Positions 1,012 to 28,764 of a stretch of DNA of 64,000 nucleotides are shown one piece after another (positions within the stretch are counted from its first letter, which is position 1; each line of letters starts with the position of its first letter). The notes beneath the pieces were generated by a model. It searched no databases, was not told where the DNA came from, and saw only the letters and a list, made by a program, of their open reading frames with translations. The DNA comes from Effusibacillus dendaii (GTDB lineage: Bacteria > Bacillota > Bacilli > Tumebacillales > Effusibacillaceae): positions 1,464,501 through 1,528,500 of the forward strand of contig NZ_AP023366.1 in the NCBI RefSeq assembly GCF_015097055.1. Direction: 5' to 3'. Made by a program: the position numbers and the translations under genes.

Positions 1012-1490
1012 AACGGAAAGGTCGGCCGATCCAAACCGCTGTGTTGCTGTTCCGCCCCCGCCGACCTTCTGATGATCCTTTTATTATCAAAGAATCGTTA
1101 GAAGCGATGCGGCAAAAATTTACTGCATCAACCGGTTTTCATTTAACAGAACAAACGATTCAACAGCAAATTCAAGCAAATGACACAATAACTATCATCG
1201 AAAAAAACGGTCGGCCGATCGGTTTTTATATGTATACGGTCTACCCGAATCGGACGATGTACTGGAGTTCATTGATCCTCGTCAACAGTGAGCAAAGCAA
1301 AGGAATCGGACGGCAGGTGGTACAACACATTGACAGGGAAGCCGCAAAGCTTGGGGTTCGGCTGATTGAGGGGCATGTACAGATAACCAACCAAAAAGCG
1401 CTTGCATTCTGGCTTCAGAACGGATTTCAAATCGATTCTCCCCCAATCAATGGCAATATCGCGATCAGTAAAATTGTCCGTATCGAGTAG
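1005..1490 (+). CDS. GNAT-family N-acetyltransferase, possibly with its end replaced
   Basis: About 161 residues. It has the GNAT core: a beta4 strand (MYWSSLILVNSEQ), then the acetyl-CoA loop SKGIGRQVVQHI (the Q/RxxGxG/A signature reads QSKGIG), and the typical NQKALAFWLQNGF near the end. The start is probably GTG 1005 (GGAG at 995-998, 6-7 bases upstream); GTG 1002 is an alternative. Either overlaps the stop of the gene at 700, which points to translational coupling. The acceptor substrate is unknown. The last codons and the TAG stop (1488-1490) appear to lie inside the 3' end of the group II intron remnant (about 1482-2745), so the native C-terminus may have been lost. Confidence 0.8.
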   Translation: MVKRKGRPIQTAVLLFRPRRPSDDPFIIKESLEAMRQKFTASTGFHLTEQTIQQQIQANDTITIIEKNGRPIGFYMYTVYPNRTMYWSSLILVNSEQSKGIGRQVVQHIDREAAKLGVRLIEGHVQITNQKALAFWLQNGFQIDSPPINGNIAISKIVRIE

Positions 1491-1491
1491 G

Positions 1492-1552
1492 CCCATGAAT
1501 TAATTCATGGGTCTCTCACAGAACCGTACGTGCGGGTCATCGCATACGGCTC
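1492..1552 (-). ncRNA. Group II intron domains V and VI remnant
   Basis: On the minus strand 1552-1521 reads GAGCCGTATGCGATGACCCG and continues to CACGTACGGTTC. This is a domain V hairpin whose arms (GAGCCGTATGCG / CGCACGTACGGTTC) are largely complementary and carry the AGC-type catalytic triad position. It is followed by a perfect 20-base palindrome (CCCATGAATTAATTCATGGG, 1492-1511) at the place of domain VI. No bulged branch-point A is evident in this palindrome, which would block branching even if the rest of the ribozyme were present. Confidence 0.75.
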
Positions 1553-1560
1553 TTCCGCGA

Positions 1561-25071: not shown

Positions 25072-27462
25072 TTAGTTACGCAACGGTTTCCCGTTTGTCA
25101 GCATGTATCTCATCCGTTCCTGCGACTTCGGTTCGCCGCACAGACTTAAAAATGCTTCCCGTTCAAGATCCAACAGATACTCTTCCGTTACCCAGGTGTT
25201 GGCCGGTACGTCACCGCCAGTCAGTACGTAGGCAACTTTTTCAGCGATCTTCATATCATGGTCGGAAATAAAACCGGAGTGCTTCATGCCGAACAAAGCA
25301 ACTTTCAATACGGCAAAACCGGCTTCCCCGACAACGCGCACTTTCTTTCTCTGCGGCGGTCTGTAGCCTGCATCAGCCAAACTGATGGCCGCTTGCTTGG
25401 CATCGTAAATCAGGTAGTCTGTATTGACTGTCACGCCGTCCGTTTGACGAAGATGGCCCAATGTCTTTGCGTCCGGTCCGGACGTGGACACTTTCGCCAT
25501 TGCGATCGTTTCAAATGTTTTATTGACGAACGGCTGCAGATCCACATCTTTATTGTCCTGTACCGCTTCAATATTCCGGATCAAAAGCTCCTTGTTGCCG
25601 CCGCCGCCCGGCAGCAAACCGACGCCCACTTCGACAAGACCGATATAGCTTTCCGCCGCCGCCTGGATGCGGTCTGCCGGATAACATACTTCGATACCGC
25701 CGCCGAGCGTCATCGAGAACGGAGCCGCAACGACCGGTTTATCGAGATATTTCAGTTTCAACAACGTATCCTGAAATCTCTTCACCGAATAGGCAATATC
25801 ATCCCACTCTTCATCCTGCGCGCCCATCAAAATCATCATCAGGTTTGCGCCGACACAGAAGTTCTTTGCCTGGTTGCCGATTACAAGTCCGCGCCAGTTG
25901 TTCGAAACCTCCGTGATCGTTTCGTTAATCATGTTCGTAATATCGTCGCCGATTACTTGGTTTTGCGAATGGAATTCCAGGCAGACAATGCCGTCCCCAA
26001 TATCAATCAGGGAAGCGCCTGCATTCGATTTCACCTTTTTACCCTGTTCTTTAAGAGCTTTCAGGTCGATAAACTCTTTAGGCTGTTCGATTCCTTTGTA
26101 ATCTCCTTTCAGCGTTGCAAACAACTTAACGCCGTTCTCCCTGCTGTAGAAGGCTGTTTTGCCGGAAGCCAGCATTTGTTCGACCCAAGCCGGTATGGTT
26201 TCCCCTTCCTGCTTCATGCGGGCAACCGATTTTTCCAAACCGATAGCATCCCATGTTTCAAATGGGCCCAATTCCCAGTTAAAGCCCCATTTCATTGCTT
26301 TGTCGACGCTGACGATATCATCCGCAATTTCTTCCACGCGTTCAGCCGTGTAGAGCAGTACACGCTTCAATACGCCCCATGCGAACAATGCGGCCTTATC
26401 TTCACCGTTCACCAACGTTTTCACTTTGGCGGCCGATCCTTTTTGCGCTTTGGCTGCTTCCAAAGAGGCAAAATTCGGTTTTCCGGCAGGCCGATAATCA
26501 AGCGTATTGTAATCGAGCACCGAAATCTCTTTGCCTTCTTTTTTATAAAAACCCTGTTTGGTTTTCTGCCCCAACCAGCGTCGTTCTACCATCTGTTGAA
26601 TAAAGTCCGGTACCACAAAAGTCGCCTTCTCGTCCGGATCGGTAACATTTGCATGCACATTGTTGGCTACATTTACAAACGTATCGAGACCCACAATATC
26701 CAATGTACGGAAGGTGGCCGACTTTGGACGTCCCATGGCCGGGCCGGTAATGGCGTCAATTTCATCGATCGTAAGACCGTTTTTCGTCATTTCCTGAACG
26801 GTTACCATCAGGCCGTAAGTACCGATTCGGTTGGCAATGAAGTTGACCGTATCTTTGCAGACTACAACCCCTTTGCCAAGCACCCGTTCGCCGAAATTAA
26901 CCATGAAATCAAGCAGTTCGGGTTTGGTATCGCTGCAAGGAATTACTTCCAGCAGTTTCATATAGCGGACTGGATTGAAAAAGTGGGTCCCTAGGAAATG
27001 CTGGCGGAATTCCTGGCTTCGTCCTTCCGACATTTGATTGATGGAAACACCTGATGTGTTGGAGGAAACGATAATCCCCGGCTTCCACACGCTTTCTATC
27101 TTCTCAAACAATTGTTGTTTGACTTGGAGCTTTTCCACAACCACTTCAATAATCCAATCTACTTCCGACAGTACAGAAAAATCGTCCTCGATATTACCCG
27201 TTTTGATCAGATCGGCATTTCCCGGTACGTAAAGCAGCGCCGGTTTCGACTTCAGCAGAGCTTCCTTGCCTCGGTTAGCAAAGCGGTTGCGTACAAGTGG
27301 ATGTTGCAATGATAAACCTTTTGCCTTTTCTTCCTCTGTCAGCTCGTTCGGTACGATATCAAGCAGATAGGAAGGAATTCCCACATTGGCCAGATGCGCC
27401 GCAATTCCGGTCCCCATGACTCCGGCACCAATCACTGCCACTTTTCCGATTTTAAAATCCAT
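25072..27462 (-). CDS. fadN: 3-hydroxyacyl-CoA dehydrogenase / enoyl-CoA hydratase (FadN/FadB type)
   Basis: A 796-residue bifunctional beta-oxidation enzyme. The N-terminal half is the NAD-dependent dehydrogenase ([28 protein letters not shown]; the catalytic-His region [17 protein letters not shown]). The C-terminal part from about residue 470 is a crotonase-type hydratase ([49 protein letters not shown]). This order is that of Bacillus FadN and the reverse of E. coli FadB. ATG 27462 has GGAGG nine bases upstream. It is the first gene of the fad operon; its upstream DNA is interrupted by an IS110-family remnant. Confidence 0.93.
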
Positions 27463-27483
27463 CCCCAAACCTCCTTGTATATT

Positions 27484-27531
27484 AAGAGCAGCTACCGATT
27501 TGGTTTACATAACCATGACGTAGTTGCTCTT
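27484..27531 (-). promoter_or_regulatory. Leader hairpin in front of fadN
   Basis: AAGAGCAGCTAC (27484-27495) pairs with GTAGTTGCTCTT (27520-27531), with one wobble or mismatch. Inside it TGGTT (27501-27505) pairs with AACCA (27511-27515). The stem-loop ends about 10 bases before the fadN ribosome site. It could protect the mRNA or regulate translation; on the plus strand it is followed by TTTAAATTTTT and could act as a weak terminator. Confidence 0.45.
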
Positions 27532-27541
27532 TTAAATTTTT

Positions 27542-27551
27542 GTTCTTTGAA
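27542..27551 (+). repeat. Left copy of the 10-base direct repeat GTTCTTTGAA
   Basis: Identical to 28511-28520. It marks the probable left boundary of the IS110-type remnant, either a duplicated core/target site or a deletion junction. Confidence 0.5.
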
Positions 27552-27653
27552 AATTAAATCGAACCGTTTGATCATGCTGGATGTAGCCCAAGCGAAGCGC
27601 GGGAGCATTTTCCTAGCGATCGCTTTAGCAATTGAATGCCAGTTAGAGATGTT

Positions 27654-27816
27654 TACGACCTTGGGCTGTCTTTGGGAAAATAGCCGCAGGTGTCTACCAA
27701 GGGAATGTTCCGTTACCTCCCGCAGAGGGAGGCATGTGCACCGATGGCCCCCGGTGTATTCCAATAGCTCGCAAGGCCGTCGTTCATGGGTTTCCCAGGG
27801 ACATCCCAAGGTCGTA
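27654..27816 (+). ncRNA. Candidate IS110 bridge RNA locus
   Basis: TACGACCTTGGG (27654-27665) is perfectly complementary to CCCAAGGTCGTA (27805-27816), a 12-bp stem that closes 139 nt. Inside are CCTCCC (27716-27721) with GGGAGG (27727-27732), a 6-bp hairpin, and CACCG/CGGTG around 27739-27755. The element lies directly upstream of the transposase start, the position where IS110-group elements encode the bridge RNA that pairs with target and donor DNA. Expression and loop specificity are not shown. Confidence 0.55.
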
Positions 27817-27850
27817 GGCATCTTCATTCCAACCGCAGGAGGTGATTGCC

Positions 27851-28519
27851 ATGCCCTCTCCCCTGTTTGTCGGAATTGATGTAGGCAGCGAAGCCAATTC
27901 GGTTTGCTGTTTGACCCGGGACGATGAGAAACGACCTGTTAGCCGATTTACTGTCACCAACAATCGTCCCGGAATCCTGGAGTTTCAGGACCGCATCACC
28001 AAGCTGGTGCAGAAACACCACGCGCAAGAAGTTCTCTTCGGCCTTGAGCACACGGGCGGTTTTTCGACCCATGCCGCCATGTACATCCAACGTCACTTTG
28101 ATTTCGGCGTCCGCCGTAAGAACGTGTACCTCTTCAATCCCAGTCTTATCGTCGACTTCCTTGTGAAGCACGGCAAGAACCGGTTCGACGATCCTGAGGC
28201 GGTCGCCCGTACCTTGCAAAAGGCTGCGCGCTCTTCGTATCGATTGGCGCAAGCGATGGCGGACTCTGTCAATCTCGCTATGGCTTCCAGCATCCGCGTG
28301 ATTCGCACAGTACAGGAGCAGTTGAAGGCGCTTCGCAAAGGGATTGAAGATTACTTGGCGACGATTCCGCAAACGCTGGATTCCATTTCAGGCATCGGTC
28401 CTATCTGTGCTTCCGGAATAGTGGCCGAACTGGATGTACGCTCGACTTTACGCGCCCGAGGGAGAGATCCGACAACACGCGTAGACATACCAAAAATCTG
28501 CAAGGCACCAGTTCTTTGA
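27851..28519 (+). pseudogene. Truncated IS110-family transposase
   Basis: 222 residues from ATG 27851 (AGGAGGTG upstream). The RuvC-like DEDD domain is present: FVGIDVGSEANS (first Asp), FGLEHTGGFS (Glu), and NRFDDPEAVARTL (last two Asp). A helical linker leads to LDSISGIGPICASGIVAEL, the start of the Transposase_20 domain. After this the sequence departs from the family (DVRSTLRARGRDP...) and stops, so the catalytic Ser domain is absent. The protein cannot recombine by itself. It is antisense to any transcript from the fad promoter. Confidence 0.85.
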
Positions 28520-28520
28520 A
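28511..28520 (+). repeat. Right copy of the 10-base direct repeat GTTCTTTGAA
   Basis: Identical to 27542-27551; the transposase stop codon falls inside it. It marks the probable right end of the remnant. Confidence 0.5.
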
Positions 28521-28736
28521 TAAAATAGCAATAACTGAAATCCAAGGCAGGGTGGGCTTAGTTTGGTGTTGCCTTCTTAGCTGCACCTCCCCAAAAAGCA
28601 ATGGGTACGACAAATATTAGGTTAAGTTGGGAGCTTGACATCGTACCGCTGCTCTCATGCTGATGTTTCCAACGATTAAATTATAACCAAAACAGCCATC
28701 ATCCACGACTTCAGATACAGCACAGAAGAATTTAAC
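28521..28736. other. Gene-free stretch between the IS110 remnant and the FadR site
   Basis: About 216 bases (part of a 447-base gene-free stretch up to 28966) with stops in all frames and no family resemblance. On the minus strand it would be the distal part of a long leader from the fad promoter to fadN. No terminator is evident in it on that strand, so read-through into fadN is possible. Confidence 0.4.
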
Positions 28737-28754
28737 TGAATGGTTATTCATTCA
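28737..28754. promoter_or_regulatory. FadR-type operator
   Basis: TGAATGGTTATTCATTCA agrees with the Bacillus FadR consensus TGAATGAMTANTCATTCA except at one base (G for A at position 7). FadR represses beta-oxidation genes until long-chain acyl-CoA is present. It lies directly downstream of a good minus-strand -35/-10 pair, where a repressor would block transcription start. No fadR gene lies in this window. Confidence 0.75.
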
Positions 28755-28764
28755 TTTTGAGATT

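What the first reader, a model, noticed from the sequence alone, without database searches (positions are those of the whole stretch)
27654..27816. Probable IS110 bridge-RNA locus preserved beside a dead transposase
A perfect 12-bp stem (27654-27665 with 27805-27816) encloses 139 nt with two further hairpins, directly upstream of an IS110-type transposase gene. Position, size and fold agree with the bridge RNAs of the IS110 group. Because the transposase has lost its Ser domain, the RNA could only act with a recombinase supplied in trans, or it may be a relic.
Basis: partly seen in the sequence, partly recalled or inferred. Interest (0 to 1): 0.6.

Follow-up and report, generated by a model that had tools for sequence, protein, structure and literature searches.

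The report
Broken guide RNA of IS110 element
The long hairpin is what is left of the guide RNA of a jumping gene whose intact relatives use it to insert just in front of genes at the ribosome-binding site; here both the RNA and its enzyme are broken, yet three copies sit at three places, so an intact helper probably once moved them.

Summary
The hairpin is real and is the remnant of a genuine IS110-group bridge RNA, but a deleted one. Intact relatives in other Bacilli carry a ~285-nt RNA at the same place. It has the same outer stem (14 of 86 consensus pairs show compensatory changes) and two internal loops whose guides match the element's own targets better than swapped guides do (0 of 20,000 permutations). 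The window copy and two sister copies in its genome share a ~104-nt deletion that removed the right target guide and left donor guide, and a 336-nt transposase deletion that removed the DxxD motif; the window copy also lost the Ser domain. So a recombinase supplied in trans should not revive this RNA. Three such copies at three sites suggest that the defective element was mobilised in trans by a helper since lost. In the wider clade 35 of 49 insertions have an ATG 7-9 nt outside the left core (controls 2-5 of 49), in the Shine-Dalgarno region. The left end supplies a new Shine-Dalgarno, predicted stronger than the reconstructed old one at 44 of 46 sites. RBS-type targets are known from IS900; I found no report of the rebuilding.

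The parts
27473..28653 (+). Defective IS110-group element (left end to right end, cores excluded)
   Evidence: Ends shared with two further copies in the genome and with intact relatives; flanks differ
27471..27472 (+). Left core dinucleotide CT (target side)
   Evidence: Junction alignment; left core varies between insertions (CT, CC, TC, TT and others), as expected if it comes from the target
28654..28655 (+). Right core dinucleotide CT (donor side)
   Evidence: Invariant in right-end junctions; register set by the target-guide and handshake positions of relatives
27647..27823 (+). Bridge-RNA relic: outer stem plus remains of both loops
   Evidence: Fold z -7.2; aligned to 9 intact homologues, outer stem with compensatory changes
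27647..27679 (+). 5' arm of outer stem
27791..27823 (+). 3' arm of outer stem
27710..27718 (+). Retained left target guide (LTG) with its core guide CT
   Evidence: Homologous position to the LTG of intact relatives; does not itself match this copy's target better than relatives' guides do
27721..27722 (+). Junction of ~104-nt deletion: right target guide, handshake guide, 3' strand of target loop stem, 5' strand of donor loop stem, left donor guide and part of the donor-loop hairpin are missing
   Evidence: Same columns missing in all three genomic copies
27764..27776 (+). Retained right donor guide (AUA...CAAGG), fits left end CCTTGTAT
   Evidence: By position and complementarity; the RD scan could not test it
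27842..28519 (+). Remnant transposase frame, 225 aa: PF01548 partial; DxxD region and Ser domain lost
28148..28149 (+). Junction of 336-nt in-frame deletion shared by all three copies
28441..28442 (+). Junction of 284-nt deletion private to the window copy (Transposase_20/Ser region)
28634..28653 (+). Right end with TTGACA; with TATATT of the left end it would form a promoter across the circle junction (20-nt spacer)
   Evidence: analogous to IS621 as described in PMC11208158 passages
27460..27480 (-). Shine-Dalgarno AAGGAGG plus ATG of the neighbouring fadN-like gene (start 27462, minus strand), the SD being completed by the element's left end

Best explanation
The hairpin is the surviving outer stem and loop remnants of the bridge RNA of an IS110-group element. 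In intact relatives, the RNA made from the left end binds the DEDD/Ser recombinase; its first loop pairs with the target and its second with the element's joined ends, so that the element inserts at a CT-like core inside the Shine-Dalgarno region of a gene. After insertion the left end (antisense CAAGGAG) takes over as that gene's Shine-Dalgarno. In this genome an ancestor lost ~104 nt of the RNA and 112 codons of the recombinase, and was afterwards moved to at least two more sites by recombinase and bridge RNA from an intact copy since lost (ends in cis, machinery in trans). The window copy then decayed further. Shown by sequence: homology, stem covariation, guide-target and left-donor-guide fit in relatives, shared deletions, RBS context. 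Inferred: transcription, binding, trans-mobilisation, any effect on translation.
For: Nine intact homologues: 14 of 86 consensus pairs with compensatory change, 98.2% of cells paired; shuffles mean 5.5 pairs, slid registers 0-3. Guides of 17 lineages against 34 sites: LT5 3.20 own vs 2.21 swapped, RT4 2.80 vs 1.87, 0 of 20,000 permutations. Scan of ~250 columns: best LT window is the LTG (z 4.1, next 2.4), best RT window is at the RTG (z 4.0, next 2.3), best LD window is the LDG (z 5.4, next 4.5). Three copies share both deletion junctions but sit at different sites, each with ATG 8 nt outside the core. No full-length family copy in the genome at E<=1e-60. IS621 bridge RNA works in trans on a 22-bp donor (PMC11208160, passages), and ISEc11 moves with transposase and non-coding region in trans (PMC11187229, passages). 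RBS context: ATG at 7-9 nt in 35 of 49 vs 4 of 49 (right flank) and 2-5 of 49 (shifted). SD energy -5.52 before, -10.56 after; 44 of 46 improved, 1 worse, 1 same.
Against: Guide registers were set by eye on some of the same sites; in the automatic scan the best RT column is off by one nt for the near relatives (alignment gap), and several LD windows also reach z>4 because LD varies little. The right donor guide could not be tested (scan tied). The window copy's own LTG fits its target no better than relatives' guides. Divergence between the window copy and each sister copy is somewhat biased to synonymous change (12 of 26 and 8 of 15; binomial p 0.019 and 0.014; c2-c3 3 of 12, p 1), which simple decay of dead copies does not predict; recombination with a functional copy, or gene conversion spreading the deletions, would explain it. 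Rfam has no matching family. In two same-genus genomes without the element fadN already has a strong SD, so the gain at the window site may partly reflect decay of the old half.
Confidence: 0.8

Rival explanations
1. Three intact copies inserted first, and gene conversion later spread the two deletions among them, so no trans-mobilisation of a defective element happened.
For: Synonymous bias between the window copy and its sisters; a run of linked differences at 27945-27991 in which the window copy differs from both sisters.
Against: Needs two separate deletions to be copied into all three sites without carrying flanks; each copy keeps its own lesions and ends.
Confidence: 0.2
2. The retained hairpin has been kept for a new role (for example an RNA that binds or titrates IS110 recombinases, or a structure in the antisense fadN leader).
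For: Among the three defective copies the retained RNA has 2 of 181 variable columns versus 45 of 732 elsewhere (Fisher p 0.004).
Against: Post hoc test with 2 events; the RNA also changes more slowly than the rest in intact relatives (for example 14 of 285 vs 121 of 1444); one of the two changes (27656) breaks a stem pair in two copies.
Confidence: 0.08
3. The hairpin is only a structured 5' leader or attenuator of the transposase mRNA, not a bridge RNA.
For: It lies in the leader and ends just before the tnpA Shine-Dalgarno.
Against: Loop segments covary with targets and with the left donor across lineages; two-loop architecture as in IS621.
Confidence: 0.04
4. Chance inverted repeat.
For: None found.
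Against: z -7.2 and covariation.
Confidence: 0.005

Closest known systems
IS621 (IS110 group) and its 177-nt bridge RNA (PMC11208160, PMC11208158; passages read)
   Same: RNA in the left end; two internal loops, first variable and second conserved; guides for target and donor sides; CT core; -35 in right end and -10 in left end; DEDD plus Ser recombinase in intact relatives
   Different: Intact RNA here ~285 nt inside one long outer stem; transposase ~415 aa rather than 315-330 aa (length range of the IS621 branch from PMC11187229 passage); target is the Shine-Dalgarno region; junction promoter spacer 20 nt; window copy deleted
IS900 of Mycobacterium avium subsp. paratuberculosis (IS110 family; PMC8141618, passages read)
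   Same: Target CATGNNNNNNTCTCCTT has the same layout: antisense start codon, short spacer, antisense Shine-Dalgarno
   Different: Different lineage; bridge guides and rebuilding of the Shine-Dalgarno were not compared here
Engineered mini-IS of ISEc11 moved in trans (PMC11187229, passages read)
   Same: Ends in cis with transposase and non-coding region in trans are enough
   Different: Laboratory construct of the IS1111 group; here a natural deletion derivative is inferred
Element of Alicyclobacillus pomorum DSM 14955 (locus L027) and 11 copies in genome G288
   Same: Same family: ends, RNA, transposase ~59% identical to the window frame in the best segment
   Different: Intact RNA and transposase

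Membership tests
IS110 group with bridge RNA (element family, intact relatives) | DEDD_Tnp_IS110 and Transposase_20 domains in one recombinase | tested here: met
   L027 protein: PF01548 1.2e-21 and PF02371 1.1e-20
IS110 group with bridge RNA (element family, intact relatives) | Structured RNA in the left non-coding end with two internal loops | tested here: met
IS110 group with bridge RNA (element family, intact relatives) | First loop fits the target (LTG, RTG) | tested here: met
   34 sites in 17 lineages
IS110 group with bridge RNA (element family, intact relatives) | Second loop fits the donor: left donor guide | tested here: met
   best LD window is the LDG; by eye also L047 and L055, but L059 has a mismatch
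IS110 group with bridge RNA (element family, intact relatives) | Second loop fits the donor: right donor guide | tested here: inconclusive
   Complementary by eye; scan tied because only two left-end types exist
IS110 group with bridge RNA (element family, intact relatives) | CT core, no long terminal inverted repeats, no target duplication | tested here: met
   Read from junctions; left core is CT in 22 of the 34 sites, otherwise CC, TC, TT, CA or TG
IS110 group with bridge RNA (element family, intact relatives) | RNA transcribed from the circle junction and bound by the recombinase | not testable with these tools
   TTGACA and TATATT/TATAGT are present but 20 nt apart
Functional bridge RNA (window copy) | All four guides present | tested here: not met
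   RTG and LDG deleted
Functional IS110 recombinase (window copy) | Four acidic residues and Ser domain | tested here: not met
   336-nt and 284-nt deletions; no PF02371 match; residues assigned by motif, not by structure

The most novel reading that the evidence does not exclude
A clade of IS110-group elements in Bacilli uses its bridge RNA to home to ribosome-binding sites, and its left end is a portable Shine-Dalgarno that rebuilds and usually strengthens the one it interrupts. Natural non-autonomous derivatives with a broken bridge RNA spread in trans, so that guides and ends can evolve apart, as in MITE and IS pairs.
Probability: 0.5. Interest if true: 0.65.

Novelty: new variant of a known kind. 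Interest (0 to 1): 0.5.

Why it matters
It gives natural evidence, if the trans-mobilisation reading holds, that an IS110 element needs only its ends in cis, and it shows what loss of individual guides looks like. It also offers a simple reason why these elements can settle in front of genes: they insert in the Shine-Dalgarno region and bring a replacement. That is directly testable with reporters, and it matters for choosing natural IS110 recombinases as tools.

Tried and rejected
Own-genome and plasmid DNA searches: no plasmid DNA match. Plasmid protein search gave 641 records, all under 60% identity, not pursued. Viral contigs: 6 pattern stretches, none confirmed. Rfam: nothing in the element at gathering threshold; at E<=1 one chance-level hit, RF04343 at 27480-27539. 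Promoter scan found no minus-strand promoter in the element, and its counts equal shuffles.

Core position: I first took the first CT of the right end GCTGCTCT as the core because it gives an 18-nt promoter spacer. I rejected it because the RTG and handshake positions of relatives and the sister family's GGACT end fit the second CT; the spacer is then 20 nt.

Solo ends: a pattern scan of the genome for the left end gave 18 places at up to 2 mismatches, against 31 for the reversed control pattern; the three known copies are the two exact matches and one of two one-mismatch hits. The other one-mismatch hit (L124) is not followed by an element by eye.

Dropped rows: 61 junction rows, 49 with both ends kept; some of the 12 dropped are truncated real elements, some are chance. 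Of the 49, 34 were used for guide tests; left out were W, c2, c3 and 12 sites of a more divergent RNA subgroup (L007, L012, L016, L019, L020, L047, L048, L053, L059, L069, L119, L121). Some kept sites lie in similar surroundings (for example L045 and L091), so the 49 are not fully independent. Of the 46 with a start codon within 4-15 nt, the chance level is high (24-32 of 49 in controls), so the ATG 7-9 count is the one to use. The ORF count, 35 of 49 against 5 of 49 (right flank) and 8-16 (shifted), counts frames open to the locus end, some short. The shuffled-left-end control is approximate.

Full report
Observation. The 191-nt stretch folds far better than 200 shuffles (z -7.2). It precedes an open frame with a partial DEDD_Tnp_IS110 domain.

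The element. A protein search of the whole genome (one contig, 3.45 Mb) with the window frame gave five stretches, and a DNA search seven. They amount to three copies of one element: window (W), c2 (near 2,359,100) and c3 (near 2,941,500), about 97% identical over shared DNA. Their flanks differ, so the ends are plain: left end CCTTGTATATTAAG from 27473, right end TACCGCTGCT to 28653, with core CT on each side. A fourth stretch (1,534,154) is a different IS110 remnant.

Relatives. A scan of genome contigs gave four relatives, among them Alicyclobacillus pomorum (L027), Lentibacillus populi (L028) and A. shizuokensis (L030). In 398 genomes of the class, 26 had a match to the L027 protein at E<=1e-60. 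Among them G288 has 11 copies, and G368 has 3 or more copies of this family plus copies of a sister family at ~46% identity. L027 encodes an intact recombinase with both IS110 domains.

The RNA. Nine intact left-end RNAs align well. Fourteen of 86 pairs have compensatory changes against 5.5 on average in shuffles, and 0 to 3 when the partner is slid by 1 to 3 columns. Variation is concentrated at the two guide places of the first loop, while the second loop is nearly constant. That is the pattern reported for IS621 (PMC11208160, passages).

Guides. I read LTG and RTG in 17 lineages and compared them with 34 insertion sites. Own guides fit better than swapped guides: 3.20 against 2.21 of 5 on the left, 2.80 against 1.87 of 4 on the right, 0 of 20,000 permutations as good. 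As the registers were set by eye, I also scanned about 250 alignment windows without choosing one. The best left-target window is the LTG and the best left-donor window is the LDG. The best right-target window is at the RTG, one nucleotide off my register for the near relatives because of a gap. The left-donor test has several other windows above z 4, and the right-donor test is uninformative. By eye, the two nucleotides after the RTG fit the last two donor nucleotides in both families (AG with CT, UC with GA), like the handshake guides of IS621 (PMC11208158, passages). This settles the core as the second CT of the right end.

What is broken. Relative to L027, all three copies of this genome lack the same 104 nt of RNA (after window 27721) and the same 336 nt of tnpA (after 28148). 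W alone lacks another 284 nt after 28441; c2 and c3 have their own lesions. The RNA loss takes the RTG, the handshake guide, one strand of each loop's stem and the LDG; LTG and RDG remain. The 336-nt loss takes the NDRVDAW motif, which I assign by pattern to the last two acidic residues; in IS621 changing any of the four, or the serine, abolished recombination (PMC11208158, passage). So neither RNA nor protein of any of the three copies should work. The deletion junction was not seen in the other 8 of 398 genomes that matched the RNA (two candidates scored per genome).

How three dead copies came to be. They share both junctions but occupy different sites, each with proper ends and an ATG 8 nt outside the core. 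The simplest reading is that a copy with both deletions was moved afterwards by machinery in trans. This is mechanistically plausible: a 22-bp donor is enough when the IS621 bridge RNA is supplied separately (PMC11208160, passage), and a mini-IS moved in trans in the IS1111 group (PMC11187229, passage). No intact family copy was found in the genome. Two 426-aa IS110 transposases of another kind are present and I did not test their guides. Against a simple history: differences between W and the other two lean to synonymous change (12 of 26 and 8 of 15, p 0.019 and 0.014), which suggests past exchange with a functional copy; gene conversion remains a rival.

Target. Of 49 sites with both ends, 35 have ATG 7-9 nt outside the left core, against 4 on the right and 2-5 in shifted windows. 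The layout is that of IS900's target CATGNNNNNNTCTCCTT (PMC8141618, passage). Two same-genus genomes have the fadN-like gene without the element; the gene aligns up to GAGG before the start, and by eye the promoter region of one resembles W's right flank.

Rebuilt Shine-Dalgarno. The left end reads CAAGGAG outward. Predicted pairing with a 16S tail (recalled letters) goes from -5.52 to -10.56 kcal/mol on average; 44 of 46 sites improve, 1 is worse, 1 unchanged, and in G288, with 11 copies, 11 of 11 improve. For old insertions the former half may have decayed; in the two same-genus genomes fadN already has GAGGAGG. The effect on expression is inferred only. The paper searches made (listings of a licence-limited library) showed no report of this.

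Verdict. A bridge-RNA relic in a non-autonomous IS110 derivative: bridge-RNA identity about 0.95, dead about 0.9, mobilised in trans about 0.7.

Noticed in passing
window 1482-1554 (-): Group II intron domain match, RF00029, 45.9 bits.
   Followed up: no
window 28738-28755: TGAATGGTTATTCATTCA resembles the FadR operator of Bacillus (consensus recalled); the element sits between this presumed fadN promoter region and the fadN ribosome-binding site.
   Followed up: partly
window 27542-27551 and left ends of relatives: A box like GTTCTTTGAAAA recurs in many left ends of this family and its sisters; role unknown.
   Followed up: no
L158 (genome G007), about 1324-1571: A left end with a degraded bridge-RNA relic and no transposase match in the locus.
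   Followed up: partly
window 27644-27825 versus the rest of the element: Retained RNA varies less among the three dead copies than the rest (2 of 181 vs 45 of 732 columns, Fisher p 0.004, post hoc).
   Followed up: partly
own genome near 1,029,087 and 2,902,450: Two 426-aa IS110 transposase frames of a different kind, possible but untested helpers.
   Followed up: no
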